Shown here one piece after another: positions 19,899-44,852 of a DNA stretch of 51,381 bases. Under the pieces are notes generated by a model. It saw nothing but the letters and a program-made list of their open reading frames with translations, was not told the origin of the DNA and searched no databases. The stretch comes from a virus. How positions within the stretch are numbered: position 1 is the stretch's first letter; each line of letters starts with the position of its first letter. Made by a program: the position numbers and the translations under genes. The stretch is from positions 1 through 51,381 of the IMG/VR virus record IMGVR_UViG_3300019360_000016; one strand, 5' to 3'.

Positions 19899-19930
19899 TG
19901 TTGTGCACTCCTCAAATTGTGTCACCAACC

Positions 19931-20788: not shown

Positions 20789-22006
20789 CTAGCCCAGAAT
20801 AGTTACCGGGCGTTCGTACTCATCCAACAGCACCCCCACCCGGAAAATGCGATACCTCACTTGGTACACACCCGGAGCCGCATACAAGTGCCGTTTCTCA
20901 CACCTAGTTTCCTCCGAGTACACCGAACATGACCCTGACACATTCCCGTCGCCCCACCAAATCTCGAACCGATCCGGCTCAGGACCGCCACCCGGCACTC
21001 CCGCCCACTCTGTCCAGGGCTGCAACCACACGTAGGTCCCGAGCGGAATCGGGTAAGCATCGGTGTTTACCCGCACACCGCCCCTACTCAGAATGAACCC
21101 CGCCCACGGAGCGGTGAAAACCGGAGCACCCGTATTGCACGGCGTGTACCCCCCCGACGGAGGCCCTTCATCCACAAGCAACGTTTGTGTAACCTTGGTG
21201 GAGCGGCCCAAATCATCACTCACAGTGATGTGTCGCAGAAACGTCTTCCGGTTTCGCAGCCCTCCCGTATCCGCCGTCATGCGGGGCTGGTACAACCACC
21301 GCTGCCCGAACTCCGCCCCGGACGTAAGGCCATTAAACACCCGAATCGGTGATTCCCCATCACACGGCTTGAATCCGATGTTAACCACCGCCCTCATCAA
21401 CTTATCTTCGGGGTCGAAGGGCGTGAATCGAAAATCGCTACCTTGACTCAGACCCCACCATCCCACCGCCACATCCCAATCGAGTGCTTCAGTCCCAGTA
21501 GGGAGTAATGGGCCGTAACTCGTCGCCACCACACTCGGAGACTCATTCCACAACTCCGAAGGGTTGGGGTTCGGGGCCACCGTCACCCGGAACAACAAAT
21601 GCTCCGATCGTCTCCCCCACCCATCTTGGCAACATGTGGCGGTGTATGTTCCCGGTTGGTGGTAGTTGTAGGTGAAAACCGGGTTAGCATTGGGCGTCTG
21701 GTTCCCCACCGAAGCGGCATTGGTCATGGGATCCGTGTCCCCCGAACTCATCGTCCACCGATCGGGTTGACTCGTAATGATCGTCCGACAGGAATCCGCA
21801 AAGTCGAACGTAAACGGCATACCCTGCACTGCACTCAACCGCAGAATCGGCAACGGTCGTGCCGTTTGAGCCGGGTAATCCACGCCCCACACACAGGAAA
21901 ACGGATCATTCGTGATCTGTAACTGCTGCGGCGGCACTCCCTGCGGTAGCGGCGGTCCCGCTTGTGCCATCACCCCCATAAGTACTCCCACAATTCTTGT
22001 ATTCAT
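20789..22006 (-). CDS. Secreted PKD-fold protein encoded in the early block
   Basis: 405 residues from ATG 22006 (GGAG upstream; overlaps the previous stop as TGATG). Residues 1-16 form a signal peptide with a signal peptidase I site after AQA. The mature protein is beta-rich with at least two PKD/Ig-like modules: PVFTYNYHQPGTYTATC (near 110-130) and a C-terminal WWGDGNVSG followed by HLYAAPGVYQVRYRIF. Several Cys suggest disulphides. PKD domains bind proteins or sugars at cell surfaces. An exported early protein could block superinfection or alter the envelope; a virion role is also possible. Confidence 0.8.
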   Translation of the reverse strand: MNTRIVGVLMGVMAQAGPPLPQGVPPQQLQITNDPFSCVWGVDYPAQTARPLPILRLSAVQGMPFTFDFADSCRTIITSQPDRWTMSSGDTDPMTNAASVGNQTPNANPVFTYNYHQPGTYTATCCQDGWGRRSEHLLFRVTVAPNPNPSELWNESPSVVATSYGPLLPTGTEALDWDVAVGWWGLSQGSDFRFTPFDPEDKLMRAVVNIGFKPCDGESPIRVFNGLTSGAEFGQRWLYQPRMTADTGGLRNRKTFLRHITVSDDLGRSTKVTQTLLVDEGPPSGGYTPCNTGAPVFTAPWAGFILSRGGVRVNTDAYPIPLGTYVWLQPWTEWAGVPGGGPEPDRFEIWWGDGNVSGSCSVYSEETRCEKRHLYAAPGVYQVRYRIFRVGVLLDEYERPVTILG

Positions 22007-22458
22007 CACTGGTACTCCTGTAAACTGACAAACTTCACTGGTAGCCCATACACCTGAGCTACCGCAACACCCACATCGTACACCGTTTGCCGAAACTCTT
22101 TAGACCCGCAAACCGATATGGTGTCATGCAATCTCGACTGCATCATGTCCAGAAACGTCGTGTCCTGTTCGGTTTTACACCCCAACGCCGTTTTCACTTC
22201 GGGCCAAAGACACAAGACGTTAGCTATTGATTGGCCTTCCATTTGCCCACTATACAGGTGGTCTGGAATGAGTTGTCCGGCGGCACATTTATTGTTGCCT
22301 GCCCGGTAATAACATCGTCGAACCCCGAAATCATCCTCGCCCAACGCTGGTCGTCTTTGGTGGAGCAACCCATTCACCATATTCGTCAACCATCCACCCC
22401 ACCGAACCTTCGTCTCTGCATCCGGAATCAATCCGGCCAATCCCGCCGTGTGATCCAT
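22006..22458 (-). CDS. GQLIPD-family phage protein, copy 3
   Basis: 150 residues from ATG 22458 with AAGGA upstream. RWGGWLTNMVNGLLHQ, CYYRAGNNKCAAGQLIPDH, LYSGQMEGQ and FLDMMQSRLHDTI match copies 1 and 2. It is the first of the three to be transcribed, just after the 269-residue gene. Confidence 0.8.
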   Translation of the reverse strand: MDHTAGLAGLIPDAETKVRWGGWLTNMVNGLLHQRRPALGEDDFGVRRCYYRAGNNKCAAGQLIPDHLYSGQMEGQSIANVLCLWPEVKTALGCKTEQDTTFLDMMQSRLHDTISVCGSKEFRQTVYDVGVAVAQVYGLPVKFVSLQEYQ

Positions 22459-22511
22459 GACACTATCCTTCTGTTGAAGCCGGGTACAACTCTCCCGGTC
22501 CGAACCACCAC

Positions 22512-23321
22512 TTAACCACCTGTACCATAACAACTACCCACCACACCAAGCAGAGCGGCATGAGCGTCTGCGACTATCGGCACTAGCGGGTAAGGCTCAA
22601 TCAATCCCTTGGCCCGCAATGAATCGACATACAGGTATTGCACAGAATACAACGCGGAGGCAGAGTATATGAGTTTGGCCTCAGCTAAAGCCGTATCACT
22701 TTCCACAATGAACTGTAGCCAGTCACGAGGTGTTAGTTTTTCCCCGGTCCGAACACGGATATAAGCCGTACACAATTGATACACCAAGCTGCTCAACAAG
22801 GACTGGTCGTGGTGTCGGTGCCACGTTTCCCAGTCGAAGTTTATCGTGATCTTCTGCCACATATCCACCGTGGCCGATTCGTGGATTGCTTCGGGATGCT
22901 TTCGTGTCTTGAGCATTTTCTCAAAGTCTTGAACGTGAATCCAAGCCATTGTTCTCCAGTAGTACAGAGGGGAGGAAACATCCCAGCCCCGACCCAAGCC
23001 GAGTTTCTGTCGAGCCGGCGTGGGCATGATGTATCGGTATGGGATTCGCACCGACCCCTGGTCTTGTGGGGAATCCTGAACCATCGAGTTGTAAACGGCG
23101 GGACTGTGATCCGGATTGTATCCCTGTTTCCCCGTCTCCCTCTGGAACATCTCCCACAACATCGTCGGCCAATACTCCTCACATAGCTTCCAAGAGGAGG
23201 TGATGTTCCGTGCCGCCAACCATTCCCGCCACCCCGACACAAGTAGGCCCCGCTTCGTCCCATCCGAATGGGCTTGGTCCAATCGTCGGATGTGGAACAA
23301 GTAGATAATATCACTGGTCAT
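22512..23321 (-). CDS. Hypothetical protein downstream of the conjugation cassette
   Basis: 269 residues from ATG 23321, with GGAG upstream and an ATGA overlap with the previous gene. Trp/Tyr/His-rich and mainly helical (SGWREWLAARNITSSWKLCE; WETWHRHHDQSLLSSLVYQL). No motif recognised. It continues the overlapping chain that begins with the ubiquitin-like gene, so it may be a target, adaptor or unrelated passenger. Confidence 0.72.
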   Translation of the reverse strand: MTSDIIYLFHIRRLDQAHSDGTKRGLLVSGWREWLAARNITSSWKLCEEYWPTMLWEMFQRETGKQGYNPDHSPAVYNSMVQDSPQDQGSVRIPYRYIMPTPARQKLGLGRGWDVSSPLYYWRTMAWIHVQDFEKMLKTRKHPEAIHESATVDMWQKITINFDWETWHRHHDQSLLSSLVYQLCTAYIRVRTGEKLTPRDWLQFIVESDTALAEAKLIYSASALYSVQYLYVDSLRAKGLIEPYPLVPIVADAHAALLGVVGSCYGTGG

Positions 23322-23508: not shown

Positions 23509-23736
23509 CTACATGATGTGGTGAGCCGACCCCTTTACCACAATATCCTCGGTCGGTTGACCGGTAATCCATTCTACATACAACGCCAACGATTTTCCAG
23601 CGGCCCCCTTCGGCCAGTGGAGGTGATGTTCCAGCCGCCCCATAAACCGACCGAACTCCTTGGAGGTCATCACTCCCGTCACCGCCTTCAGGGCATCGTA
23701 CACCGCATTCCCGTCCCGCACTGAGGGTTGATACAT
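23509..23736 (-). CDS. Small protein following the E1-like gene (75 aa)
   Basis: ATG 23736 overlaps the E1-like stop as TAATG. Starts MYQPSVRDGNAVYDALKAVT and contains KSLALYVEWITGQPTED. The short phrase EWITGQ also occurs in the 28666-28878 product (QEWITGQTCP), so the two may be distant relatives. Tight coupling to the E1-like gene makes it a possible accessory of the cassette. Confidence 0.7.
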   Translation of the reverse strand: MYQPSVRDGNAVYDALKAVTGVMTSKEFGRFMGRLEHHLHWPKGAAGKSLALYVEWITGQPTEDIVVKGSAHHIM

Positions 23737-24440
23737 TATCGGTCTCCGTGCAGGGAGAACTGACACTCGGCCTCCAACATCCCATCGTGGACCTTCACCG
23801 GTAGGGCGGACCCCCTCAACCAGTGAGCGTAACACTCCACCGCCCGACTTCCCGCTTTGGCGGCGGTGTAATACGTTGCCTGAGCCGTACACGGAGCGGC
23901 GTAAGCTTTGTGTTGTGGGAACCACTCCGACAAGTAGTGGTCGTAACGTTCCTGATCGGTGATCGGAATAGTGACTCCCGTTTCCAGGCCCATCCGAGTA
24001 TCCACCAAGAATTGCGGTTTCCGTTTTCGGGCCCACAACGAGGTAACAATCAACCTCCGTGCTTCCATGTTGTCAACACACAGGAACACAGCGGCAGTGG
24101 CGGGTATCAACTTCAACCGATCCGCCGTCATCATCTCCGGCAGACACACCACCTTCACCTCCGGATTCCGGTTTCGCAGATCGTGACTCAGGGCTTGCAC
24201 CTTGGGTTGTCCCAAATCCCCATGAAACCAACCCTGGGTTCCCAAGTTCTCTAACGCCACCGTGTCTCCGTCCACCAATGTAATGCGGTTCACGCCCATT
24301 GACACAAGAAGTCGGGCGATCATGGCTCCGATTGCCCCCGTTCCAATCACCGCCACCGGGTGACTGTTCAACAGATCGGGTGGCAGCACTCCGGAAAACC
24401 GGGCCGCTCTCGCCTCAGCCAATAAGGAGGGGGCTTTCAT
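23736..24440 (-). CDS. E1-like (ThiF/UBA) activating enzyme
   Basis: 234 residues. Adenylation (Rossmann) domain: VIGTGAIGAM (nucleotide loop, G33/G35/G38), LVDGDTVALENLG (D57, D59), LGQPK (K80) and FLCVDNMEARR (D123). A candidate catalytic cysteine is C184 in APCTAQATYYTAAKAGS, the position used by small ThiF-type E1 proteins. The usual NLxRQ is NLGTQ. It would adenylate the C terminus of a ubiquitin-like protein, encoded three genes upstream. The start overlaps the JAMM gene by 26 bases, with GGAG upstream. Confidence 0.9.
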   Translation of the reverse strand: MKAPSLLAEARAARFSGVLPPDLLNSHPVAVIGTGAIGAMIARLLVSMGVNRITLVDGDTVALENLGTQGWFHGDLGQPKVQALSHDLRNRNPEVKVVCLPEMMTADRLKLIPATAAVFLCVDNMEARRLIVTSLWARKRKPQFLVDTRMGLETGVTIPITDQERYDHYLSEWFPQHKAYAAPCTAQATYYTAAKAGSRAVECYAHWLRGSALPVKVHDGMLEAECQFSLHGDR

Positions 24441-25281
24441 CTATCTTCTCCAGACAAAGAGGTGTATCCTTGACCAAACCGGACAGTTCTCCGGTTGCCG
24501 CAAACTTCACCAACTCACCACCACTTAACCACCGCCCACCACCCTTGGTGCTGGGCAACTCCACAAACAGGAGTTTCTTCCAGTGCTTCACATCACGAGC
24601 CCTGCCGAGCGGAGCATATTTATCCCGCCGCCCGTCGTAAATACACAGCACTCCGTTTTGATTGATGAACGGCAAATGCATAGCCACCCTGTGTCCGATC
24701 AACGATTCCGACCACGACTTCGCGGTTTCCGTTTTCGGCCACACCTTGGGGCGAACATTAGCCGAATACAATCTCTCCAACTGTTGATCCAAGTCGGCGG
24801 GCACACCGTAGGGGGGAGCCATGTCGAACAAAAACGGAATGGTCTGCTCCAACCGCAGGCCCCGAATTGTGGATTGCACCTTGGCGTAAGTATCTCCGCC
24901 CCGTGCTGCAATCGCCATCACCGCCCAATCAAACAATCCGAACGTTTCCCGAAACACCGCCTCATCTTGGCCGGACGGATGAGCGCTGGTGCCGGGGTGA
25001 CTATGTATCCACACCCTCATGAATTGGCGTGCCTCCCACCCCGCCCCTTCCCACACCTCCAAAATATCCTGAAGGCTGGACGGGCAAAACTCTGTCCATG
25101 CCGGCTCATCGAATTGTACCGGCACAATCAGATCAGTGACCACCAAGCTCTCCGGGTCCGGCGTTACCCCCAACACCGATACCTCAGTCGGCCCTCTCCT
25201 CATCAACCACTGTAACTTCAACCACGCCAGGGGTTTCAGCACCACCTGTGTTGGCGGTTTCTGGGGTCTTGTCTCCGTCAT
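24415..25281 (-). CDS. JAMM/MPN+ metallopeptidase (ubiquitin-like deconjugase)
   Basis: 288 residues. All JAMM residues are present: E33 in PTEVSVLG, H93 and H95 in WIHSHPG, S103 and D106 in HPSGQD (HxH then ten residues then D). Residues 1-160 are the JAB domain; the rest is a second domain (GHRVAMHLPFINQNGVLCIY; KKLLFVELPSTKGGG), as in PRTRC protein A-like proteins. It should cleave isopeptide bonds or trim the ubiquitin-like C terminus, in the cytoplasm. Start has AAAAGGAG upstream and lies 98 bases inside the previous gene. Confidence 0.92.
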   Translation of the reverse strand: MTETRPQKPPTQVVLKPLAWLKLQWLMRRGPTEVSVLGVTPDPESLVVTDLIVPVQFDEPAWTEFCPSSLQDILEVWEGAGWEARQFMRVWIHSHPGTSAHPSGQDEAVFRETFGLFDWAVMAIAARGGDTYAKVQSTIRGLRLEQTIPFLFDMAPPYGVPADLDQQLERLYSANVRPKVWPKTETAKSWSESLIGHRVAMHLPFINQNGVLCIYDGRRDKYAPLGRARDVKHWKKLLFVELPSTKGGGRWLSGGELVKFAATGELSGLVKDTPLCLEKIDESPLLIG

Positions 25282-26380
25282 GTTTTCTCCTTTTCGTTTT
25301 CGGATTACACTTCACACAGCAACCCTCACTACCCATGTGGGTTGGACAAAAGGACAGGCGGCATTTCTTACATACCCCGCCCAAATTGTGCTTAGGACAC
25401 ACCGTTTTCCCGCAATATCGGCCAGTGGGGGTTCCCACGGCGCAACTAGCTTTATGATAGGTGCTGATAGTTCGTGCCACACACACCCGACAGAACCCCG
25501 CCTCCGGACCCCTCGCCTCCACCACACAAACCGGACAGACATACGGATTCGCTGAAACCGGGCTCAACGGAACTGCGGCCCGACAATGAAGACAATCCGA
25601 CCGGCAACCCGCACACTTAGGCGTATTCATATCCCGGTGGTAGGGCTTGAAGCAGACGTTGCACACTTCCCCCTTCTCATCCCAAAACGCCATGCTTTTG
25701 ATGTGCCGCCCAGTCATATCATGCTGATGTAGGTAGTCCCACAACACACTGAACGCTTCCGGAACATCTTGGTGGCGAAGGGCTCTTTCATACGGCATTT
25801 CCGCTCCACCCAAACACGGCTTGAACCATCCCTCCATTATTGTCCACTGTTCCTGCCACTGAGGGGCTGCCTCGTGAGGATGCAAAATGTGGGGCGAAAT
25901 CTGCTGCTGCAAATCCGCATACCGATGCGGCGACCTATCTCCGAACACCCTAAACAACGGCTGGGCATTCTGATTCAACCGCCACAACCAAAACGGAATC
26001 ATCACTCGAAACTGCCCCAACCTCACCGGATCATCTCCCACATAGCCCGGTACTGGTGGGTCCACCGGCAGGGATACCATCGGGGTGTCAATCCATACCC
26101 GCTGAATGCCCCCCCTTGAATCTGCTCCCCACTCTCCACCCGGAATACACGTCGCCAAGGCCAATATCAATGCGTCGGGATTCTCATACAGCTTGTAGGG
26201 CACACGCCGCGATGCCCCTGTCATGCCGAACTCCGAGTTGGCGATGTGCTCTGCGGCTACTGTATCCGCCAACTCAGCCCACTCCAAAAACATTTCCTTC
26301 GTCAGTCGTCGTTGCTCCTCCTCTGTCGGCGTGCGGCACATGTACATCCACAACTTGGTGACAACTTCCTCTCTCGTCAT
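25184..26380 (-). CDS. Possible E2-like domain fused to cysteine-rich (RING/ribbon-like) zinc domain
   Basis: 398 residues from ATG 26380 (GAGGAG upstream). Residues 1-235: helical start, then beta strands (FRVMIPFWLW), SPHILHPHE (162-170) and a solitary Cys in FKPCLGG (C189), the order expected of divergent bacterial E2 (UBC) folds: His-Pro-His, then a catalytic Cys followed by helices. Residues 240-358 hold 19 Cys, mostly in CxxC pairs (CNVC, CAGC, CLHC, CPVC, CRVC, CKKC, CVKC) plus CPKH and CPTH, which suggests several treble-clef or ribbon zinc sites. A charged tail follows. Zinc binding is clear; E2 and E3-like roles are inference from pattern and operon. Confidence 0.75.
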   Translation of the reverse strand: MTREEVVTKLWMYMCRTPTEEEQRRLTKEMFLEWAELADTVAAEHIANSEFGMTGASRRVPYKLYENPDALILALATCIPGGEWGADSRGGIQRVWIDTPMVSLPVDPPVPGYVGDDPVRLGQFRVMIPFWLWRLNQNAQPLFRVFGDRSPHRYADLQQQISPHILHPHEAAPQWQEQWTIMEGWFKPCLGGAEMPYERALRHQDVPEAFSVLWDYLHQHDMTGRHIKSMAFWDEKGEVCNVCFKPYHRDMNTPKCAGCRSDCLHCRAAVPLSPVSANPYVCPVCVVEARGPEAGFCRVCVARTISTYHKASCAVGTPTGRYCGKTVCPKHNLGGVCKKCRLSFCPTHMGSEGCCVKCNPKTKRRKHDGDKTPETANTGGAETPGVVEVTVVDEERAD

Positions 26381-26475
26381 GTCTGTCTCCTCAAAACTAA
26401 GCGGCATAGAGCTATCACCGCACTTGTATCCCGCAGACACTCACAAGCTCCTTAAACGGTGCTCGCGGCATTCTC

Positions 26476-26721
26476 TCAGGCCCCCGCCACGTTCGCCGGA
26501 GCCACCCCGATCCGGCTACCGTCCTGCACCGTCGTCCGGGCGGCTTCCTCAGCATCAACCGTTCGGCGACTCCCATCCGGGGCCGTCAACCGAATCGTAA
26601 CCTTGGTGGAGGGATTGCTGCCGATCTGCCGCTCCACAATCTCCTTCACCGTGGTCCCTTCCGGGACCTCCAACTCCACAACCTGCCCCTCTCCAAACGG
26701 GGAACTAAACTTGATCTGCAT
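26476..26721 (-). CDS. Ubiquitin-like (beta-grasp) modifier
   Basis: 81 residues from ATG 26721 (GGAG seven bases upstream; another ATG at 26733). Secondary structure pattern fits a beta-grasp: MQIKFSSP, a second strand VVELEVP, helix TVKEIVERQI, strand KVTIRLTAPDG, and a final VQDGSRIGVAP strand. It ends ANVAGA; removal of the last Ala would leave a C-terminal Gly. First gene of the cassette, upstream of the E2/zinc, JAMM and E1-like genes, as expected for the modifier. Confidence 0.8.
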   Translation of the reverse strand: MQIKFSSPFGEGQVVELEVPEGTTVKEIVERQIGSNPSTKVTIRLTAPDGSRRTVDAEEAARTTVQDGSRIGVAPANVAGA

Positions 26722-26853
26722 AGCTTTCTCCATGAAGAAAAATACCCTTGTTCCCGAAACCGGCCACAGATTGAGGAGTGTTTCCTCGTTCTGGTGGGGG
26801 ACATTTTCCCTTTGGCGGCATCGGTCACGTTCCTGGGACCTACACCGGCCCCA

Positions 26854-28878: not shown

Positions 28879-30248
28879 CGTTCGGCCTCCGTCAATCCCA
28901 CCCATACATGCGGTTTCTGGGCCCCGGCTTTACGTCGAGCCGATACAATACCCGGAAACACCCTACTCACATCCGCAATCAGGCGGGGGGGCGTGTACCC
29001 CACCGGAAGGACAATCTCCTTCCGTGCTTCCGCAACCCGAATCGCATCCCACAAGTCACTGCGGGGCACAGCTACATCACGGGCCGGCTCATAACTGTAC
29101 TGGGTCAGGAGCCACGTCCTGATCGGATCAGACTCCGCCCTCAATGAGTCCCCTGCCTCGGTGACTGCCCGGCTCTCCGTGAATCGACCGTTAGTCCACA
29201 GGCGGATCAGCCCCTTCACCGCCCAGTTGAAGATTCCCGGTAACTCCGCCGCCGCAATTTTCTTCCCCAAATCTGGAATCTGTTTGTCGCTGGGCACAGT
29301 GTTAGTCCAAGGCATAAGTATGATCCGTCTCCACAAGGCGTTGGTAGGGTCCGCAAACTGGGGTCTCTGATTCATGGAGATCACGAACCGAGCGGTGGGA
29401 TCGGCGGTGAACGTATCCTTCCCTTTGCGTTCAAAGGTGAACGATTCCCCCGTAACAAGGTGTCGAAGCGTTGCAACCGGAACCCGAATACCTGGGTCCG
29501 TCTCCCCACATATGTTGACCAACTTACCCAATGTTCCCACCGGAGCAAATTGCCGTCCGAGTGACCCTAGATCGGTGGCAGAACAGTTCCCGTGTCCGAC
29601 CATAGCTCTAAGTACATCCATCGCTTGTGTCTTACCGTTAGCTCCAGGACCCTCCATGAGTAGCATCTTCTCCAAGGAGGTATCGAATGTACAACAATAC
29701 CCGAACCACTCCTGTAACACCGCCACCCGTTCGGGGTCCTGGGACAAACTCTGCCCCAGAAACTCCAGCCACCTCGGACACTCCGCATGAGGATCGTAGT
29801 CGTAGGGCAGGCAGGAGGTGCAAAACCACTCCTCACTGTGGGCGGCGAGCACCGGTTGCTTGCCCGCTAGGCAGGGGTGGAGGTCCAGAATCCCGTTGCG
29901 GAGGGCGGTCTTGAACCTGTGTTTGTCGGTTTGCCCTAGCTTTCCCGGCATCGCTTGGTCGAGGGGACAAAAACACGCCGATCTCAAACGTCCCTCTATC
30001 TCCATTGCGGAAAACCCCGAAACCTGTAATCCGGTAGCAGCAGTTTGGTGCCACCGGTCGATTAGCATTCGCATGAAGTCCTCCGATCCCGCCTCCTCGT
30101 AGTGTGTCCCTGAGTAATGCCAATAGCTGTTCGCCCACCAGACTAACTTTTTCCCGTAGTGGTTCAGAAACTTCCTCGATGCCAATACATACTTCATGCG
30201 GGAGCATTGAGGACTGGGTTTCTCCGTTTCCGGCAGGTCGGTGTTCAT
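28875..30248 (-). CDS. D5/P4-type primase-helicase (SF3)
   Basis: 457 residues. The N-terminal D5_N-like region (NHYGKKLVWWANSYWHYSGT; LRNGILDLHP) is followed by an SF3 helicase: Walker A GPGANGKT (200-207), Walker B-like LVNICGET (243-250), sensor FVISMNQRP (N293), and arginines WRR near 306-308. No zinc-finger primase domain is evident, so it may act mainly as replicative helicase with P4-like features. ATG 30248 lies inside the upstream gene; the first 416 bases are shared in another frame. Confidence 0.9.
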   Translation of the reverse strand: MNTDLPETEKPSPQCSRMKYVLASRKFLNHYGKKLVWWANSYWHYSGTHYEEAGSEDFMRMLIDRWHQTAATGLQVSGFSAMEIEGRLRSACFCPLDQAMPGKLGQTDKHRFKTALRNGILDLHPCLAGKQPVLAAHSEEWFCTSCLPYDYDPHAECPRWLEFLGQSLSQDPERVAVLQEWFGYCCTFDTSLEKMLLMEGPGANGKTQAMDVLRAMVGHGNCSATDLGSLGRQFAPVGTLGKLVNICGETDPGIRVPVATLRHLVTGESFTFERKGKDTFTADPTARFVISMNQRPQFADPTNALWRRIILMPWTNTVPSDKQIPDLGKKIAAAELPGIFNWAVKGLIRLWTNGRFTESRAVTEAGDSLRAESDPIRTWLLTQYSYEPARDVAVPRSDLWDAIRVAEARKEIVLPVGYTPPRLIADVSRVFPGIVSARRKAGAQKPHVWVGLTEAER

Positions 30249-30597
30249 AGTTCGGCATGTCCATTAACTCCGGGGGCAGTAATCCACGGGCAACCATCTC
30301 CCTCGTGTGCATGGCTCCCATAACGTTGAAGGCCATAGCCGCCTCGTGATCCTCGTCCACCATTCCTTGGGCGGCTTTCACCCTATGCCGCTCCAACGAA
30401 TCCATGTAGCGGGAGTACGGTATGCCCCGTTCCCAGTTGCGATCCCCGTATTTGGTGGCACCTAACTCCAACCACCGAGCCAACCGCTCAAGGAGCACCG
30501 GACTGATGAGGTCAAACCGTCCTTTCCCCGCCTGTGTATCGCGGCGTGCTCCGGTATTCCATTCCTGTCGGGTCCCCGAATCCTTCATATCGTACAT
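29833..30597 (-). CDS. MazZ-like (DUF5664) dATP/dGTP pyrophosphohydrolase with overlapping tail
   Basis: 254 residues from ATG 30597 (GAGGAG upstream). Residues 15-110 carry the DUF5664 pattern: KGRFDLISPVLLERLARWLE, LGATKYGDRNWERGIPYSRY and DEDHEAAMAFNVMGAM. Family members hydrolyse purine deoxynucleotides and accompany 2-aminoadenine synthesis in some phages. The last 138 codons coincide with the start of the primase-helicase in another frame and are Pro/Gly/Arg-rich; this tail may be accidental. It follows the HD phosphohydrolase gene with a 13-base overlap. Confidence 0.85.
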   Translation of the reverse strand: MYDMKDSGTRQEWNTGARRDTQAGKGRFDLISPVLLERLARWLELGATKYGDRNWERGIPYSRYMDSLERHRVKAAQGMVDEDHEAAMAFNVMGAMHTREMVARGLLPPELMDMPNYEHRPAGNGETQSSMLPHEVCIGIEEVSEPLREKVSLVGEQLLALLRDTLRGGGIGGLHANANRPVAPNCCYRITGFGVFRNGDRGTFEIGVFLSPRPSDAGKARANRQTQVQDRPPQRDSGPPPLPSGQATGARRPQ

Positions 30598-31139
30598 CCC
30601 AATCTCCTCTGTAACTCTGAGTGAGCAGCCAAAAACTCCTGACGACAATCACGAGCCCCCATCATAAACTCCACGGTTCTCGATGATCCCGGTGCCCTCG
30701 GAAACAGGTTGTCCCGTTCCATTTCTCGCTGGAACATATCCAAATCCTTGACCTCCTGTGGGATCGGCCACATGCCGCTGTAACGGGTAATGATCGTGCG
30801 TAGTAATCTGTTTTCAAATGTCTCCAGACTCAGTACATCAGCGGAGGTGTGTCCCAGACGCATATCGAGATGCTGCTTAATCGGTTGAATGATGTCTCCG
30901 ATGTAGGTCTCCGCCGAGTCGTGGTGCAAGGCGGACACCAAGAATGCGGGGTCCTCGTTAATGAACTTCGCATGTCGGTACACCCTCACAGCATGAGCCG
31001 CAACCGGCCAAGGGATTACCGTGTTCCCGTTGTACCGGTTTTGATTGGCCAAGCTGTGAACAATGTCCCCTATACGTATGGAGGAGGGGAGTAACGGATC
31101 AATGTCCACCTCCCCGGACAGCACACGAACCTTAATCAT
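30585..31139 (-). CDS. DatZ/YfbR-like HD phosphohydrolase
   Basis: 184 residues. HD-fold signature: RIGDIVHSLANQNRYNG, VAAHAVRVYRHA (H49), LVSALHHDSAETYIGDIIQP (H73, D74, E77, D82). The pattern is that of the YfbR and DatZ families; DatZ hydrolyses dATP in phages whose DNA contains 2-aminoadenine. Its neighbour is the MazZ-like gene. It would empty the dATP pool or clean other deoxynucleotides. GGAG precedes the ATG. Confidence 0.87.
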   Translation of the reverse strand: MIKVRVLSGEVDIDPLLPSSIRIGDIVHSLANQNRYNGNTVIPWPVAAHAVRVYRHAKFINEDPAFLVSALHHDSAETYIGDIIQPIKQHLDMRLGHTSADVLSLETFENRLLRTIITRYSGMWPIPQEVKDLDMFQREMERDNLFPRAPGSSRTVEFMMGARDCRQEFLAAHSELQRRLGCTI

Positions 31140-32598: not shown

Positions 32599-33441
32599 TT
32601 ATCCCTTCTTCTTGTCATTGTGGGTCGCCATTGCAGTAATCGACTTCTGGAAGATCGCGTCGTAGGCATCCCACAACTCCGACGAATCTCCGCTCTGTGG
32701 CCACTCCGGAAACTCCTCCGGCAACCAGACACGCGTTTTCGGGTTGGCCAAACTGGTACGCCTTCCGGGACGGGTAGAAACATGGTACAGGAGTTTCTTG
32801 TCCATTTTCTCCTTCCCGGATTTGGGGTCCACGACTGTCACCGGAATCCACTCCAGACCTAGAGTGAATATGTGATGACAGTCCTGCTCCAAATACTTCA
32901 ACACTGAGGCAGGCAGTAGGGCCTCAGTAACAATCTCCTCCTTTTCTCCGGTTTTGGATATGAGTTTCTTACGCAGGTGGTCGGTCATCAACAGCCAATA
33001 ACCAGCCCGAAGTAGTTCCAGCCACATGTTCCGCATGTTAGCGGCCACCTTGTTGTGGTCGAAACCGGTAATCTCCTCCACCCCCAACTGCTTCCGGGTG
33101 TACTCGTTGGCGAAACCGAGGAACCCGCCACCTGGGTCCCAAATCACCACATCGTAACGGCGATCCGGACCATTGGCTTCGGCGTCTGCCAGCAACGTTT
33201 TGTGTACCGCCATATATTCGTCGTGGCTGGACACCTGCAATCGGTCGGAGCGAGGATTGACTACGTATCTACCTCCGCCTCCGGGGTCCGCATCCACATG
33301 AATACTCCTTGGGCACCCTCTGACGAAGGAGGTCTTTCCGCTTCCGGGCAGTCCCCGAATAACGAGAAAGCAGTGGTGAGCCTTGCCTGGGTCGAACTTC
33401 CCGCCGATTGAGAACTTATCCCATCCGACTGACTTGGACAT
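32599..33441 (-). CDS. Sak4-like RecA-fold ATPase
   Basis: 280 residues. Walker A GLPGSGKTS near 31-39; IHVDADPGGGG; Walker B-like YDVVIWDPGG near 108; a sensor region WLLMTDHLRKK. Phage AAA_24/Sak4 ATPases of this size catalyse strand annealing or recombination with an SSB, encoded next. Start at 33441 lies inside the upstream small gene. Confidence 0.82.
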   Translation of the reverse strand: MSKSVGWDKFSIGGKFDPGKAHHCFLVIRGLPGSGKTSFVRGCPRSIHVDADPGGGGRYVVNPRSDRLQVSSHDEYMAVHKTLLADAEANGPDRRYDVVIWDPGGGFLGFANEYTRKQLGVEEITGFDHNKVAANMRNMWLELLRAGYWLLMTDHLRKKLISKTGEKEEIVTEALLPASVLKYLEQDCHHIFTLGLEWIPVTVVDPKSGKEKMDKKLLYHVSTRPGRRTSLANPKTRVWLPEEFPEWPQSGDSSELWDAYDAIFQKSITAMATHNDKKKG

Positions 33442-33649: not shown

Positions 33650-34837
33650 TCAGTTGATTTCCAGTTCAATCGACTTCGCAGTATCTCGGACATACAACCT
33701 CGGAATTATGTGGGCCCACTCCGCCGGGCTCCTCGCCGAACACAGCGGCAGAAACTCACACGGAGCACGTCCTGGTCCCCCCCTACACAGGAACGTATTC
33801 TTGGTGCGGGTAAACTTATGTACCCGCGTAGCCCCACTACAGGCTGCATCCGCTTCCCGCAGGTGGACCTGAAACTCATAGGCCAACACCGGCTCCTCAT
33901 ACCTATGCCAGTAGGGCTCCGGCATGGCGGCGGGACCACCGGCGGTGGAAGTGGGGTGCGTGCCCTCATACCACGACTTCGCTTCCGCCAACCACTCCTC
34001 CGAGGACTGCTTCTGCTTCTGGCGAATGGTCGGACGCTGAATCGCCTCATACACCATACCCACAACCGGAGTGTCCTTCGGCAGCGGGGCGTGGACCGTT
34101 TCCCCATTCAGTGTCGTTGTCACAGTAGCCTTGCCGGATTGGAGATAGGCCAGAGCCGCCAACCTATACATGCGGGTCTGGGGATCGAAGGGGGCAGTGG
34201 AATGAAACTTCACCGGATCATCCCCGGTGATCTTAATGTCTGCCACCCACAACTCCTTCTCCTGGGTGTCGTACATCAACCGATCCATGATGCACTTCAA
34301 CGATGTAGCTAGGCCGGGTAAATCCATGTTGACTTCCACTTCAGTTGCCACCGTTTTGAAATTCTCCGGCAGCTTGTACTTCTCCCAGAACAACTGTGCC
34401 ACCACAGAAGCCAAGGCGAAATCTCCGAGTAGTGACTTCTCCAACTCCTCCTTCGACTTACGACAGTCGGGTTCGGCAGCTATATCTTTGAGGAGTTTCG
34501 CCGTAGCCTTGCGGCCAGCGTTGAGGGCTTCAGACACCCCCACCCCGTCGTGGAGGCTACCGATAATTGCATGGCCAATAGTCCCCGTTTCCCGTGCCGA
34601 CGAGTACCCCTTCTGTTTGAGTTGATACCGATGCCGCAACATGAACTTCATCAGGCAGTCCTGGAGCGTACCGAACATAGACGGGGAGAGGCGGGGTCTC
34701 ACCGACTCCCACCCCACAAACATATTCCAGTTATCGTTGGAGGGCGTACCGGTCCCGGACACCGCCCACTCCTCGAAGGTTTGTACCCCGTTAGTCTTGT
34801 TGTATCCCAGTACCGGTAGGGCAATTGTCTCCGACAT
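33650..34837 (-). CDS. PD-(D/E)XK nuclease, RecB/Cas4-like
   Basis: 395 residues. RLSPSMFGTLQDCLMKFMLR is the classic N-terminal helix with the first cluster cysteine; GTIGHAII follows. The nuclease core is LKCIMDRLMYD and LWVADIKIT (D, then DxK near 220-250), then QTRMYRLAALAYLQ. A C-terminal FLCRGGPGRAPCEFLPLC supplies three further cysteines for an Fe-S cluster, as in Cas4 and AddB. Likely an exonuclease for recombination or host-DNA breakdown. AAAGGA precedes the ATG. Confidence 0.85.
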   Translation of the reverse strand: MSETIALPVLGYNKTNGVQTFEEWAVSGTGTPSNDNWNMFVGWESVRPRLSPSMFGTLQDCLMKFMLRHRYQLKQKGYSSARETGTIGHAIIGSLHDGVGVSEALNAGRKATAKLLKDIAAEPDCRKSKEELEKSLLGDFALASVVAQLFWEKYKLPENFKTVATEVEVNMDLPGLATSLKCIMDRLMYDTQEKELWVADIKITGDDPVKFHSTAPFDPQTRMYRLAALAYLQSGKATVTTTLNGETVHAPLPKDTPVVGMVYEAIQRPTIRQKQKQSSEEWLAEAKSWYEGTHPTSTAGGPAAMPEPYWHRYEEPVLAYEFQVHLREADAACSGATRVHKFTRTKNTFLCRGGPGRAPCEFLPLCSARSPAEWAHIIPRLYVRDTAKSIELEIN

Positions 34838-35378
34838 ACAATCCTTTCAGGAAATCTAAATCTTTACTGTTCCGGGCCTGACGAACATGACTCCACAGCA
34901 CTCGAATCACCGTTTCCCCCAACCGCTTCGGGTTCACCTTGGGGAGCCACAACAACCGAACATTCAGGCGGGCCATCTCCACAAGCAGCTTGTCCAAAAC
35001 CTCATCACTCGACTTGTAGGTTTCGCGGCGAAGTCCCGTGAAGGCATTGAGGTCCCCATCCAGGAGCAGATACTTCACCCCCGGTAGGTCGGCAAACTTC
35101 TGCCACGCCTTACTCGCCCGCACTCGGTCCGACTTGCTGAACCAATTCTTGTAACACTCATCGAGGTCCTTCTTGCGCTCCAGGGCTGCGATGTTCTGCA
35201 AGGCTTGTCCGCTTACTCGTAGGTAATAGTCGCCTGCCGCAATTTGCTCCGTGGTCTGTTGGATGCGGTAGAGCCGAGACTTCCCTGAGATATCCGTCAG
35301 ATACATGGTCTCCGGAAACCGCAACCTATACTTCGGTTTCTCGTTCCGGTCGATCACCACTTCCAAAATCGGGAGCAT
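34791..35378 (-). CDS. ERCC4/XPF-type nuclease
   Basis: 195 residues. D10 in EVVIDRNEKP, GDYYLR (49-54) and the signature ERKKDLD (67-73, ERKx3D), then VKYLLLDGDLNAF, make the ERCC4 nuclease core. Phage members cleave branched or flapped DNA. It overlaps the RecB-like gene by 47 bases and follows the GroES-like gene. Confidence 0.83.
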   Translation of the reverse strand: MLPILEVVIDRNEKPKYRLRFPETMYLTDISGKSRLYRIQQTTEQIAAGDYYLRVSGQALQNIAALERKKDLDECYKNWFSKSDRVRASKAWQKFADLPGVKYLLLDGDLNAFTGLRRETYKSSDEVLDKLLVEMARLNVRLLWLPKVNPKRLGETVIRVLWSHVRQARNSKDLDFLKGLYVGDNCPTGTGIQQD

Positions 35379-35701
35379 CAGGCACCGAAACCTTCAACGA
35401 ACATGGTCTCCCCGGAAGCCGTCACACCGAATGCGAGGACGGTTTTCTCCGGCAACATCAGGTACAGTTGGCCCCCGATTCGGACCTCCTGCCCGCCGTA
35501 CTCACTAAACAATACCCGCATGCCCGGTTTCCAAGTGTTTAGACAGGCATTGCCCACCCCGACCACAGTTCCGGTATTCTCCTGCACCTTGGCGGAATCC
35601 GGCAACTCAATCCCGGTCTCTATCGCCTTCACCGGTGGGTCCGGCACAATCATCAGTTGGGCTCCCACCAGTCTCCACCGAACAGCATCCGTTTTTGCCA
35701 C
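35378..35701 (-). CDS. GroES-like co-chaperonin
   Basis: 107 residues from GTG 35701, with GGAG eight bases upstream. GIELPDSAKVQENTGTVVGV is the mobile loop and first strand pair; PGMRVLFSEYGGQEVRIGG and YLMLPEKTVLAF match the GroES core. It would cap the host GroEL, perhaps to fold capsid or other phage proteins. It is in the early block, next to nuclease genes rather than head genes. Confidence 0.85.
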   Translation of the reverse strand: MAKTDAVRWRLVGAQLMIVPDPPVKAIETGIELPDSAKVQENTGTVVGVGNACLNTWKPGMRVLFSEYGGQEVRIGGQLYLMLPEKTVLAFGVTASGETMFVEGFGA

Positions 35702-36197: not shown

Positions 36198-38879
36198 TTA
36201 CGCCCTGGTGGTGAGGATTTTCACCTCAGCATCCAGGGGGCATGTTCTCCCGTAATGTTGTTCAAGTTGGTGCCAGAAGGGTACATCTCTCAGGTGCCGG
36301 AGACAGACCTCTTCCACCACCGGGTACTCCGCCTTCGGGCATTCCACTAGCATTGAGTCGTAAATCTTCAGGTTGGACATAGCCGCCATGTCTCGTGCCC
36401 TAAACTCCTCCTCCACCCACCATGAGGCGTCAATCAGCGTGTCGGCGGCGAGGGTCTGAATGGGGAAGTTGGATATTTCGTTGATCTTGTTCTGGGTTCC
36501 CCTCACTCCGCCCACAAAGAGTCGTGACTGTCCGAGCACCGGTAGGGCGGCGTACCTAGTCGCCACGGTGGACTTGATCCACTGCTCCTGCCACCGCCCA
36601 AACTCCTTGTGATCGGAGTAGTAGGCGGATATAAGTTTCTGCCAGAATCGCACCGGAAGCAGCAACTTATTGTCCCTCGCGGCTGTCTCCATGAGTTTGC
36701 GGGCTCCGGCTTTGAATAGCACTGCGAAGTTCACCGTTTTCCCCAACTGCCTCCAAGTTTTCACCCCCGGCGTGTCTTTGGTGGCGGTAGGGCCTGAGAA
36801 CAGTTGCTCCAACCAGTCCCGTTCTACTCCGGCGAATTGGTTGAGGTTCCCCGTTTTCATGTAGTCACGCATTTCGCGGAGAATCATCAACCCTGTGGTG
36901 AGGTGTATGTCACGGTCGAGGCGGTAGTCCTCCAGCATCAAGGGGTCCCCTGACACCAAGGCGGCGGTCCTGAGTTCAATCTGGCTCTCATCCCCTTCAC
37001 ACAGGACGCCCGGTGAAAACCGGGTCCACAGGGTGCGTTTCAGCGGCTTCGACAAATTGAGCAGGCCCGGATTGCGGCAGGTAATTCGTCCCTGCTTGGT
37101 GCCCCCCGACGACGTATCCTCAAACTGGCTGGGGATAACGTACCAAGTCGGGTAGGCGGTGTCAGTTAGTAGGCAGGACGCCTTGGAGAGTTCCGTTTGC
37201 CCCTTAACTTTTCTGCCCACCAGAAGCGGACGGGTGTATCGGGAAACGGTGTCTCTGAGAGTTTTGAACCTCTGTATGCACCGAACCTTCCGAGCGGACT
37301 CACAGTAAGGATCAAGATTACCAAGTAGCAGATTGAAGTTCTCATCACCGGCGGATATCTCCTTGGTTTTGGGGGTCCGTTTCACTCGCCGATCATTGTG
37401 GAGATTGGCTAAAATCAATGCCTCCTCCATGACCGCCGAGTACCACCCCTTCACTCCCTTACCGTCCAATTTCCCCTGCCACCTAGTTTGTGCATATCGT
37501 CGTAGTCGGTCTGCACGAACGTTGCTAGTGCCCTGAATCTCGGCAACAACACGGCTGTCGATAGTGACTCCTCGCTCTGAGGCGTACATCGCCCACCACA
37601 ACAATCTATTGTAGTGGTCGTAGCAGGCCGGGGAGAGTTTGTCCGTTTCCGGGTAGTCGCGGCGGATGCTTTCCACCAACGATTCATAGTTGACAAGAGT
37701 GGCCACCGTATCTTTGGCGTTGTAGTCATAAAGTCGAGAGTCCTCCACAGACGGGTAACGATGGGTTTTGAGATTCAGTTCCTCATCGTAGTCAGCCACC
37801 ATGAGGAGTTTGGAGAGGTTCTTGAGGCTGCGTTCTGGCCGAACCTCACTGAACAGGTAGTTAATGACGCCCAATTCAATCAGTTTCCACCGGGTGTGGT
37901 TGAAGGTACGGCCCCACGGATACGCAGCCCGCAGGAACATCACATCAAACGGGATGTTCATACCCAAGAGTGTACGGCAGCCCCGTTTCCAGGAGTAATC
38001 CAGCAGGGCCCTAAACGATTTCCGCCCCTCCCGTGTCTGCATGTTGTATACCGCCGTCCGTAACCCGTCCGGGGTCCTCCATGAAACCGCAGCAGTTTGA
38101 ATGAGTTGATTCCGGCGGCACTGATCTGTCACCAAGGAGCGTGTCGGCTGGAACACGGTCTGCTTGGGGAGGCCCTCTATGCAGCCATAGGTCTCAAAAT
38201 CCAACGATAGGAGGTCGGGCACAAACTCCCCGACGGAGACTGCATTCCACTCCAATGTGGGCACTTCCGCTCTGGTGGGGATGTTTCCCGTTTCCAGGTA
38301 GGTCACAAGGAGATTGAGGTGATCAGCTACGTTGGCGGCTTCCTCTGGGGCCCGGTCCTTCATGAGTGCGGCCGGGTTCGAGGTCCAGAACACCGGCACC
38401 GAAACCGCCCCCACCGACACCGAACGGCCCTGCTGATAGAGGGCCTTCTCCAACGGTTGACTAATTAGGCTGCGGGAGGCTCCGGCACCAGCACCTAGAA
38501 TTACCACCCTCCTGTACTGGGCGGCTAGGGTTGCCACATCTTCCACGAGATGGGCATGGCACTGTTTGTACTGTCCCTGTGTCGGCTTCACATCCTTCGG
38601 GGGGCAACACCTCACCGCATTGGTGACGTAGATATCGGCGAAACGGCTAAGCCCCGCCGATCTCAGGTACACCGACTCAAGTAGTCGTCCGGACGGTCCG
38701 GTGAAGTGGGCGTTGAGGGTGTCCTCCACCACTCCGGGACAATCACCGACAATCAGTAGGGCAGTATCTCCGTTTTCGGGGCCTGACTGTATAAGCCTTG
38801 TACCAATCCCGATGTTGGTACACGTCTCCCAAAGATCACAATTCCGACATTCCGGGTGGGGATTAAGCACTGGCAACAT
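36198..38879 (-). CDS. Family-4 uracil-DNA glycosylase fused to family A DNA polymerase
   Basis: 893 residues from ATG 38879, six bases after the previous stop. UDG4 domain (1-200): C11 and C14, GDCPGVVEDTLNAHFTGPSG, YVTNAVRCCPPKDVKPT and a fourth Cys near 108, the Fe-S set of family 4. The catalytic HPS/A motif reads SNPAAL, Asn for His. Proofreading domain: LLSLDFETYG (DxE), NIPFDVMFL, YNAKD. Polymerase: RITCRNPGLLNLS, DESQIELR (motif A, canonical DYSQIELR), KTVNFAVLF (motif B), KIYDSMLVE (motif C, YDS for HDE). It copies the genome and may excise or sense uracil. Confidence 0.92.
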   Translation of the reverse strand: MLPVLNPHPECRNCDLWETCTNIGIGTRLIQSGPENGDTALLIVGDCPGVVEDTLNAHFTGPSGRLLESVYLRSAGLSRFADIYVTNAVRCCPPKDVKPTQGQYKQCHAHLVEDVATLAAQYRRVVILGAGAGASRSLISQPLEKALYQQGRSVSVGAVSVPVFWTSNPAALMKDRAPEEAANVADHLNLLVTYLETGNIPTRAEVPTLEWNAVSVGEFVPDLLSLDFETYGCIEGLPKQTVFQPTRSLVTDQCRRNQLIQTAAVSWRTPDGLRTAVYNMQTREGRKSFRALLDYSWKRGCRTLLGMNIPFDVMFLRAAYPWGRTFNHTRWKLIELGVINYLFSEVRPERSLKNLSKLLMVADYDEELNLKTHRYPSVEDSRLYDYNAKDTVATLVNYESLVESIRRDYPETDKLSPACYDHYNRLLWWAMYASERGVTIDSRVVAEIQGTSNVRADRLRRYAQTRWQGKLDGKGVKGWYSAVMEEALILANLHNDRRVKRTPKTKEISAGDENFNLLLGNLDPYCESARKVRCIQRFKTLRDTVSRYTRPLLVGRKVKGQTELSKASCLLTDTAYPTWYVIPSQFEDTSSGGTKQGRITCRNPGLLNLSKPLKRTLWTRFSPGVLCEGDESQIELRTAALVSGDPLMLEDYRLDRDIHLTTGLMILREMRDYMKTGNLNQFAGVERDWLEQLFSGPTATKDTPGVKTWRQLGKTVNFAVLFKAGARKLMETAARDNKLLLPVRFWQKLISAYYSDHKEFGRWQEQWIKSTVATRYAALPVLGQSRLFVGGVRGTQNKINEISNFPIQTLAADTLIDASWWVEEEFRARDMAAMSNLKIYDSMLVECPKAEYPVVEEVCLRHLRDVPFWHQLEQHYGRTCPLDAEVKILTTRA

Positions 38880-38884
38880 ACAGG

Positions 38885-39706
38885 TTACACCGCCTTCTGC
38901 ATCCAACGGGGCCACTGATCCAAAGCCGGAGTTGAACCACCGTCCATTACATCCGACGCAATCCCTGCCACCGTGTTGCGGGCTTGGCTGATGGTAAACT
39001 TCGACAGGTCGCCCCGGACTTGGAAGGGTAACGAGTTTTGCGGTTTCGTCGGGAATATACAATCCGTGATGATGAGATGTCCCGGATTGAGGAAGGCACT
39101 GGGACCTTCCACTCTGGGGGCTCGTAGGTTTTGTATGTAGGCGTATCGGAAATTGCCGATACTGGGTGTCCGATATCCTGTGTTCACCTCCACGGCGGTC
39201 ATGAGGATATTCTCGCACTTGTCGGCCAAGATTCCTTTACTTGCCCATCGATCCTGGACCCACTCCTTATCCGGCTTAGCTCCTCCACAGATCACGCCAT
39301 CCAACCAGAGATTTCTAACATTCACCGCCGATAAGGCATCATCACTGGACTGCCTCATAGTGGAATGGCGTATGAGGCACATCTCAATGTCCCCCACCGA
39401 CAGACTCCGCCAGCCACCCAACGGGATTTCCGTTTTCAATTCCTCGATAGGTTTCCCATAGGCGGCGTCGAACAAACAATCGAATATCCCCAAAGCCCCA
39501 ATGTTAAGGAATCCAGTTTGGCCGCTCCGCACCGTCAGTCCTACGGCGGTAACAGAGGCAAAGTCTCGAATCTCCACCGGCTTCTTGACCAGTGTCACGC
39601 CCGGTAACAGCAGCAGGACGGCTCCCGGTTCCCCCTTGATGACGGTGGTAGGGGCATCCGGGGCCTTGTCGATGAGGTCCTGAAGCGTTGAAACTACCTG
39701 TAACAT
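38885..39706 (-). CDS. Right-handed beta-helix (pectate-lyase-like) protein
   Basis: 273 residues from ATG 39706 (GGAG upstream). Repeated short strands (LTVRSGQTGFLNIGALGIFD; SVGDIEMCLIRHSTMRQSSD; AVNVRNLWLDGVICGG; GILADKCENILMTAVEV) are those of a parallel beta-helix such as pectate lyases and tailspikes. No signal peptide. It is the first gene after the early promoter, an odd place for a tailspike. Activity on polysaccharide is possible; the exact substrate cannot be read. Confidence 0.78.
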   Translation of the reverse strand: MLQVVSTLQDLIDKAPDAPTTVIKGEPGAVLLLLPGVTLVKKPVEIRDFASVTAVGLTVRSGQTGFLNIGALGIFDCLFDAAYGKPIEELKTEIPLGGWRSLSVGDIEMCLIRHSTMRQSSDDALSAVNVRNLWLDGVICGGAKPDKEWVQDRWASKGILADKCENILMTAVEVNTGYRTPSIGNFRYAYIQNLRAPRVEGPSAFLNPGHLIITDCIFPTKPQNSLPFQVRGDLSKFTISQARNTVAGIASDVMDGGSTPALDQWPRWMQKAV

Positions 39707-43989: not shown

Positions 43990-44538
43990 CTAAACTACAA
44001 TCCGGGATAGAGTCTTTATGTGTGGTAGAGCCGCCCGGTACACGTCCTCCAACACAATCACATCCTGCTTACAATGGGTGACGATCTCCTTGTAGGCTGC
44101 ACGATCACCAGCCGTGGCCCTCTGCCAAATCTCTGGGGTTAGGGGTGTTTTCTTCTCCGTCAGGTTCATATACTCTTGGACTCGGAGCAATGACCGTCTC
44201 GACATCTTGAGGCCAAACTTCACCCAGAAATACAAATCCACATGGAAGGCGTAGAGGTAGGGGCGTTTGCCGATCCCCAAGGCCCTAGTTTTCAGAAACG
44301 GGACATCAAACCCCTTCCCGTAGTATGTTACCCACACGTCGTAGTTTTGGAGCAAGGCGAGAGTCTTGTTGACCACCTTGGAGTCATCCCAAGGGCGGGC
44401 CTGAAACCGCTTCGGCCAGTCGGTTTGACTCACCACAATTGGTGCTTCCCCCAGCGGCTTAATGCACGCACACAGTACGCGGCCAAAATCCGCCGACAGG
44501 TTGGAGGCTTCAATGTCCAACATACAGACCTTCATCAT
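43990..44538 (-). CDS. DnaQ-like 3'-5' exonuclease (RNase H fold)
   Basis: 182 residues from ATG 44538, overlapping the previous stop as TAATG, with AAAGGA upstream. DEDD motifs: CMLDIEAS (D8, E10), YYGKGFDVPFL, FHVDLYFW, and HCKQDVIVLEDVY. This is the PolB-like/YprB-like exonuclease family. Acts on DNA or RNA ends; independent of the polymerase's own proofreading domain. Confidence 0.85.
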   Translation of the reverse strand: MMKVCMLDIEASNLSADFGRVLCACIKPLGEAPIVVSQTDWPKRFQARPWDDSKVVNKTLALLQNYDVWVTYYGKGFDVPFLKTRALGIGKRPYLYAFHVDLYFWVKFGLKMSRRSLLRVQEYMNLTEKKTPLTPEIWQRATAGDRAAYKEIVTHCKQDVIVLEDVYRAALPHIKTLSRIVV

Positions 44539-44852
44539 TATCCTTTCAGACATTCCTCCGACCAAACCAGCTGACCGGAGAGGGTTAGATCAGCCAACTG
44601 AGCCCCCAATCCGTCACACAGGGCTTCGGCGGCGGTTTTGTCAATGTAGTTGTTGAGTCCGGCACGGGCAAGCATTTGGTGAATCACCTCATGCCAGAAC
44701 ACCATCTCCCGAATCTCCAACGTCGCCTCCTCGGAGAGCCGGATTTGGGCTAGAGAGTCAGTGTAGTCGCCCAGTAGTTTGCCGCCGGAGAGTTTCTTCT
44801 CCGTTTTCACCCCGTAGGGTATGCCGCCGATGGTGTACCGTTTCGGGATCAT
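44538..44852 (-). CDS. Small HExxH zinc metallopeptidase
   Basis: 104 residues from ATG 44852, with GGAGG upstream. RYTIGGIPYGVK, then FWHEVIHQML (H54, E55, H58) and AAEALCDGL with a third ligand candidate E76. This layout is common to small phage metallopeptidases related to ImmA/IrrE and SprT folds. Possibly cleaves a host regulator or a virion protein. First gene after a clear promoter. Confidence 0.82.
   Translation of the reverse strand: MIPKRYTIGGIPYGVKTEKKLSGGKLLGDYTDSLAQIRLSEEATLEIREMVFWHEVIHQMLARAGLNNYIDKTAAEALCDGLGAQLADLTLSGQLVWSEECLKG

What the first reader, a model, noticed from the sequence alone, without database searches (positions are those of the whole stretch)
29833..31139. 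DatZ-like and MazZ-like genes together, but no PurZ seen
Seen: an HD phosphohydrolase with the YfbR/DatZ pattern next to a DUF5664 nucleotide pyrophosphohydrolase. Known: phages with 2-aminoadenine (Z) DNA pair DatZ and MazZ with PurZ and a dedicated family A polymerase. Here the polymerase is present, yet no PurZ-like gene was recognised in the apparently complete genome. Inference: Z-DNA via a host or diverged synthase, another purine modification, or a nucleotide-cleaning module that predates Z.
Basis: partly seen in the sequence, partly recalled or inferred. Interest (0 to 1): 0.8.

Follow-up and report, generated by a model that had tools for sequence, protein, structure and literature searches.

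The report
Phage nucleotide-cleaning pair, not Z-DNA
Two neighbouring phage genes that resemble the helper enzymes of phages whose DNA swaps adenine for 2-aminoadenine are in fact from sister enzyme families that are common in phages without the key Z-DNA gene, so they most likely just break down or clean up DNA building blocks.

Summary
The genes are real: an HD phosphohydrolase (30585-31139, -) and a DUF5664 pyrophosphohydrolase (domain 30250-30597, -), beside a P4-type primase and near a UDG-fused family A polymerase. No PurZ is detectable in the record. The Z-DNA reading is not supported. The HD protein belongs to the phrog_318/Atu1052 family, not to DatZ: a tree splits the two without error, the fold is far closer to Atu1052 (Z 20.7) than to DatZ (8.6), and the DatZ residue that excludes 2-amino purines (I22) is Gly here and in 82/82 relatives, never Gly in 69 DatZ sequences. 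PurZ lies beside 76/80 DatZ loci but 0/80 loci of this HD family and 0/80 of this DUF5664 group; whole-record searches gave 0/43 and 0/50. The adjacent pair recurs in three other PurZ-less contigs. A solo DUF5664 enzyme is published to hydrolyse dATP, dUTP and dGTP, so the likely role is dNTP -> dNMP -> deoxynucleoside pool cleaning. One clue points the other way: the polymerase has Phe where DpoZ enzymes lose a conserved Tyr (non-Tyr in 28/28 PurZ-phage polymerases, 6/92 others), but this polymerase is generally divergent. The record's left end cuts a gene, so completeness is not shown.

The parts
30585..31139 (-). HD-domain phosphohydrolase of the phrog_318 / Atu1052 family (184 aa), predicted deoxyribonucleoside 5'-monophosphate phosphatase
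   Evidence: phrog_318 E 1e-26; AlphaFold model pLDDT 91.6, VIA-align Z 20.7 to 2gz4 against 8.6 to DatZ 6zpa; tree and site tests
30250..30597 (-). DUF5664 (PF18909) nucleotide pyrophosphohydrolase domain, predicted dATP/dUTP/dGTP -> dNMP + PPi
   Evidence: PF18909 E 7e-17, phrog_18716 E 5e-28; most residues conserved across the family are shared with the assayed Wayne enzyme
29833..30249 (-). out-of-frame extension of the DUF5664 ORF lying inside the primase gene; probably not a functional domain
   Evidence: GC by codon position fits the primase frame; many relatives end at about 115-130 aa
28875..30248 (-). P4-type primase C-terminal / D5-like helicase
   Evidence: TIGR01613 E 4e-46, phrog_864 E 2e-62
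36198..39218 (-). family A DNA polymerase with N-terminal family-4 UDG-like domain; Phe in NFAVLFKAG at the phiVC8 DpoZ F459 position, YDS instead of HDS in motif C
   Evidence: PF00476 1e-18, PF03167 2e-14; TIGR00758 8e-22; residue surveys
32599..33441 (-). AAA_24 / Sak4-like ATPase of the same replication block
   Evidence: PF13479 1e-7
33650..34837 (-). PD-(D/E)XK nuclease
   Evidence: PF12705 3e-18
43990..44565 (-). RNase H-like 3'-5' exonuclease
   Evidence: PF13482 2.5e-13, phrog_403 2.6e-22

Best explanation
The pair is a PurZ-independent nucleotide-pool module. DUF5664 cuts dNTPs (by analogy dATP, dUTP and dGTP) to dNMP plus pyrophosphate, and the neighbouring HD enzyme then removes the 5' phosphate from dNMPs, so that surplus or unwanted deoxynucleotides are dismantled dNTP -> dNMP -> deoxynucleoside beside the phage's own replication genes. 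Keeping dUTP out of DNA copied by the UDG-fused polymerase is one plausible purpose; balancing or draining pools shared with the host is another. The virion DNA most likely carries ordinary adenine. Shown here: family identities, conserved active sites, and separation from the Z-phage clades. Inferred: substrates, the two-step order, and the purpose.
For: PurZ profile found beside 76/80 DatZ-homologue loci but 0/80 HD loci of this family and 0/80 loci of this DUF5664 group. Whole-record PF00709: 0/50 DUF5664 records and 0/43 HD-family records, while SH-Ab 15497, phiVC8, S-2L, Wayne and two further PurZ contigs were all found. HD tree: DatZ and the HD family split without error, support 1.0, window with the HD family. 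The column of DatZ I22, the residue that excludes 2-amino groups (PMC8065100), is G in the window and in 82/82 HD-family sequences, and I/L/M/V/A in 69/69 DatZ; metal ligands are intact. Fold: Atu1052 Z 20.7, DatZ 8.6, YfbR 8.4. DUF5664: the window groups with PurZ-less relatives and falls outside the clade that holds all sampled Z-phage members. Wayne DUF5664, a solo domain, hydrolyses dATP, dUTP and dGTP to dNMPs, and DUF5664 occurs in canonical-DNA Arthrobacter phages (PMC12884076). The pair is adjacent in L040, L063 and L078, all PurZ-less. An HD relative in Tunturi_4 sits between a polymerase and a dUTPase.
Against: No biochemistry was found for a close member of this HD family, and a paper reports that E. 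coli YfdR, whose gene neighbours yfdQ as the Hafnia yong2 relative's does, has much lower nucleotide affinity than YfbR (PMC4776307). The polymerase has the Tyr-to-Phe change common to DpoZ enzymes. Two of three primase-related contigs (L006, L007) are PurZ phages, although identity is only about 30%. The record is truncated at the left.
Confidence: 0.72

Rival explanations
1. The phage makes 2-aminoadenine DNA, with PurZ in the unsequenced end, supplied by the host or a co-infecting phage, or replaced by an unrelated synthase; HD and DUF5664 stand in for DatZ and MazZ and the polymerase is DpoZ-like.
For: Polymerase Phe at the DpoZ position: non-Tyr in 28/28 PurZ-phage polymerases against 6/92 others. 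DUF5664 can remove dATP and dGTP in the Z phage Wayne. The left end is truncated.
Against: No PurZ, DmtZ/DutZ or MazZ homologue in the record. In the reference Z phages purZ lies close to datZ, mazZ or the polymerase, and those surroundings are present here without it. Gly in place of I22 should not spare dZTP (inference). The polymerase breaks 10 of 29 conserved columns, so Phe may be general divergence; its grouping with Wayne DpoZ has support 0.38 only; five PurZ-less records also carry Phe.
Confidence: 0.05
2. The pair serves another base modification, by clearing a canonical nucleotide that a modified one replaces.
For: Related UDG-fused polymerases sit beside thymidylate-synthase-type genes and, in one Manatee Spring phage (L178), a gene annotated 'pyrimidine hmase synthase'.
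Against: No thymidylate synthase, hydroxymethylase, dCMP deaminase or kinase relative found in the window by phmmer, and no base-modification family in Pfam scans of its proteins.
Confidence: 0.08
3. The HD protein is a regulator rather than a nucleotide enzyme, for example acting on host replication initiation as reported for YfdR binding to DnaA, and the DUF5664 neighbour is an incidental dUTPase-like enzyme.
For: YfdR binds DnaA and has low nucleotide affinity (PMC4776307); a relative in Hafnia phage yong2 lies next to a yfdQ homologue.
Against: Full conservation of the metal-binding and catalytic residues in 82/82 relatives; neighbours of the family include deoxynucleotide kinase, dUTPase, thymidylate synthase, DUF5664 and polymerase.
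Confidence: 0.15

Closest known systems
phrog_318 HD family / Atu1052 (PDB 2gz4)
   Same: Sequence (phrog_318 E 1e-26) and whole fold (Z 20.7, 168 of 184 residues aligned), R-[FYW]-x-G and H..HD..E..D motif set
   Different: About 25-32% identity; no assayed close member was found
DatZ (S-2L, phiVC8, SH-Ab 15497)
   Same: HD superfamily, metal ligands, Lys equivalents of K81 and K116
   Different: Separate clade; I22 gate is Gly; W20 is Tyr; no PurZ association
YfbR 5'-deoxynucleotidase
   Same: HD fold (Z 8.4), catalytic residues
   Different: Below Pfam and NCBIfam cut-offs (17.2 against 25.9 bits; 15.6 against 122 bits)
Wayne DUF5664 (DUF5664-1)
   Same: Solo DUF5664 domain with the conserved G, K, Y, N, W, R, H, G, H positions
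   Different: About 30% identity; Wayne has PurZ0, DutZ/DmtZ and DpoZ-1, and lacks the DSGxRxEFxTGAxRD N-terminal stretch seen here
SH-Ab 15497 MazZ (DUF5664-DUF550 fusion)
   Same: N-terminal DUF5664 (27% over 80 aa)
   Different: No DUF550/MazG half here
DpoZ (phiVC8, SH-Ab, Wayne)
   Same: Family A polymerase with Phe at the F459 position
   Different: UDG-like N-terminus, YDS in motif C, no supported sister relation

Membership tests
DatZ | falls in the DatZ clade | tested here: not met
   152-sequence tree, error-free split with support 1.0, window on the other side
DatZ | bulky I22-type residue that excludes 2-amino purines | tested here: not met
   Gly38 in the window; I/L/M/V/A in 69/69 DatZ
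DatZ | encoded with PurZ | tested here: not met
   no PF00709 in the record; the record is truncated at the left end
DatZ | dATP-specific triphosphohydrolase activity | not testable with these tools
   needs an enzyme assay
phrog_318 / Atu1052 HD family | profile match, shared fold and conserved motifs | tested here: met
MazZ-1 / DUF550 and MazZ-2 | homology to the MazG-like MazZ proteins | tested here: not met
   no phmmer hit of S-2L MazZ, phiVC8 MazZ-2 candidate or the L006 MazZ-2-like ORF to window ORFs at E 10
DUF5664 (PF18909) | match over the gathering score and conserved residues | tested here: met
   61.6 bits against 27; residues
Z-phage DUF5664 clade | groups with DUF5664 of PurZ phages | tested here: not met
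   all 17 Z-phage members fall in a 21-member group, support 0.90, that excludes the window
PurZ/PurA | PF00709 homologue in the genome | tested here: not met
   the record is not proven complete
DpoZ | conserved Tyr lost (Phe/Thr) at the F459 position | tested here: met
   NFAVLFKAG
DpoZ | supported grouping with DpoZ-1 or DpoZ-2 | tested here: inconclusive
   next to Wayne with support 0.38 and a very long branch
DpoZ | prefers dZTP to dATP | not testable with these tools
   needs a primer-extension assay

The most novel reading that the evidence does not exclude
A phage that uses 2-aminoadenine or another purine analogue without a recognisable PurZ: a divergent, UDG-fused DpoZ-like polymerase combined with independently recruited dATP- and dGTP-degrading enzymes of other families.
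Probability: 0.04. Interest if true: 0.85.

Novelty: new member of a known kind. Interest (0 to 1): 0.22.

Why it matters
It separates what in the 'Z-cluster' look is diagnostic (PurZ, the DatZ clade with its I22-type gate) from what is not (any HD phosphohydrolase next to DUF5664). It suggests that such pairs assemble repeatedly in PurZ-less phages and gives a simple one-residue rule (I/L/M/V/A against Gly) for telling DatZ from the common phage HD family. It also offers a screen for odd polymerases: Tyr lost at the DpoZ position without PurZ.

Tried and rejected
Close relatives of the whole phage: no megablast match in the phage collection; single-protein scans with HD and terminase found none. 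A frameshift at the DUF5664 end was considered; relatives end with the same 'PPEL.DMP.YE' stretch (L103), so the domain looks intact and the read-through tail stays unexplained. The MazG-type fold was considered for DUF5664: best structural match AF_0060 (2p06, Z 8.1), S-2L MazZ only 3.8, which for a helical bundle proves nothing either way. DmtZ/DutZ, dUTPase, thymidylate synthase, dCMP deaminase, hydroxymethylase and MazZ queries gave no window hits. DUF5664 as a marker of odd polymerases was rejected: of the six non-Tyr polymerases from PurZ-less loci, five came from the polymerase survey and only one from the DUF5664 set (L102, Gly).

Full report
The window is the whole of one IMG/VR record, 51,381 bp, linear, completeness unknown. 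Nearly all plausible genes are on the minus strand. The left end cuts an ORF of at least 723 aa and no end repeat is present, so the phrase 'apparently complete genome' is not established. By position the cut falls in the structural block, after the portal and capsid region, and the right end also starts with long ORFs that look structural, so the gap may be small; that is inference.

The two genes are real. The HD ORF 30585-31139 matches phrog_318 (E 1e-26), a family annotated as deoxyribonucleoside 5'-monophosphate phosphatase, and matches DatZ (phrog_7076) only at E 0.035. The DUF5664 domain matches PF18909 (E 7e-17) and phrog_18716 (E 5e-28).

The HD protein is not a DatZ. A tree of 152 sequences split DatZ from the window's family without error, support 1.0. 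An AlphaFold model (pLDDT 91.6) aligned to Atu1052 2gz4 at Z 20.7, but to DatZ 6zpa at 8.6, YfbR at 8.4 and OxsA at 8.3. In S-2L DatZ, I22 sterically excludes a 2-amino group and W20 excludes ribose (PMC8065100). The I22 column is Gly in the window and 82/82 family members, and I 58, L 4, M 4, V 2, A 1 in DatZ; the W20 column is Tyr here. All HD metal ligands and the catalytic Glu are intact.

Gene association separates the families as clearly. A PurZ profile found PurZ in the flanks of 76/80 DatZ-homologue loci, 0/80 loci of the window's HD family, and 0/80 loci of its DUF5664 group. PF00709 on whole records found 0/50 DUF5664 records and 0/43 HD-family records, while the positive controls SH-Ab 15497, phiVC8, S-2L and Wayne were all found, as were L006 and L007, two PurZ contigs that had been fetched through the primase. 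The five records that carry both an HD-family gene and DUF5664 have no PurZ; in three of them (L040, L063, L078) the genes are adjacent. Many of these records are fragments, so absence in a single record is weak, but the contrast is strong. tblastn against named phages shows DUF5664 mostly in Propionibacterium/Cutibacterium and Arthrobacter phages.

DUF5664 has published enzymology. Wayne's solo DUF5664 converts dATP, dUTP and dGTP to dNMPs, and related proteins occur in canonical-DNA Arthrobacter phages (PMC12884076). The window protein keeps most residues conserved between Wayne, SH-Ab and the family but sits outside the group holding all 17 sampled Z-phage members.

The polymerase is the one pro-Z clue. 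[quoted passage not shown] The window has Phe there. In our sample the residue is non-Tyr in 28/28 PurZ-phage polymerases and 6/92 others. However, the window polymerase differs at 10 of 29 highly conserved columns, including H to Y in motif C; five PurZ-less records carry Phe too; and its placement beside Wayne has support 0.38 only. It also has a family-4 UDG-like domain, which the three DpoZ sequences examined appear to lack; the polymerases of Serbin, Almagne and ctfzr933, to which it aligns through that domain, lie among thymidylate and dUTP metabolism genes.

Mechanism: the most economical model is dNTP -> dNMP (DUF5664) -> deoxynucleoside (HD), next to primase, polymerase, AAA ATPase and nuclease genes. 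Exclusion of dUTP from DNA made by a UDG-linked polymerase, or general pool balancing, would fit. Tunturi_4 has the analogous order polymerase, HD, dUTPase, and neighbours of the HD family include deoxynucleotide kinase, dUTPase, thymidylate synthase, DUF5664 and polymerase. Substrates and purpose are inferred, not shown.

Verdict: observation partly confirmed, the Z reading unlikely (about 4-5%), an ordinary nucleotide-pool module likely. Interest is low, with a small residual for the polymerase.

Noticed in passing
window 23736-26733 (-): Ubiquitin-like conjugation cluster on a phage contig: E1/ThiF-like (PF00899 5e-27; PADLOC E1-E2 9e-17), JAB-like peptidase (PF14464 3e-6), a 418-aa Cys-rich protein without a convincing family match, and an 85-aa ubiquitin-like candidate (by eye only). 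The JAB-like protein has no tblastn match in 50,697 phage records.
   Followed up: partly
window 36198-39218 (-): Family A polymerase with Phe for the conserved Tyr, Lys for Gly after it, and YDS instead of HDS in motif C, fused to a UDG-like domain; five other PurZ-less contigs (L269, L275, L276, L277, L295) also carry Phe.
   Followed up: partly
window 29833-30249 (-): The DUF5664 ORF has no stop for about 415 bases and overlaps the primase gene out of frame.
   Followed up: partly
window 19458-20003, 20251-20700, 22006-22533 (-): Three apparently paralogous 150-180 aa proteins sharing a 'C(A/G)xGQLIPDxLY' motif; no Pfam match for the two that were scanned.
   Followed up: no
window 35378-35701 (-): Phage-encoded GroES-like co-chaperonin (PF00166 4e-11).
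   Followed up: no
L006 and L007 (IMG/VR 3300044858_003524, 3300002026_000086): PurZ phages with a P4-type primase. L006 carries primase, polymerase, PurZ, a small MazZ-2-like ORF and DatZ in order; its polymerase has Met at the DpoZ Tyr/Phe position.
   Followed up: partly
window 47662-47763 and 48007-48108: 102-nt direct repeat, 78% identical, inside one ORF (internal protein repeat).
   Followed up: no
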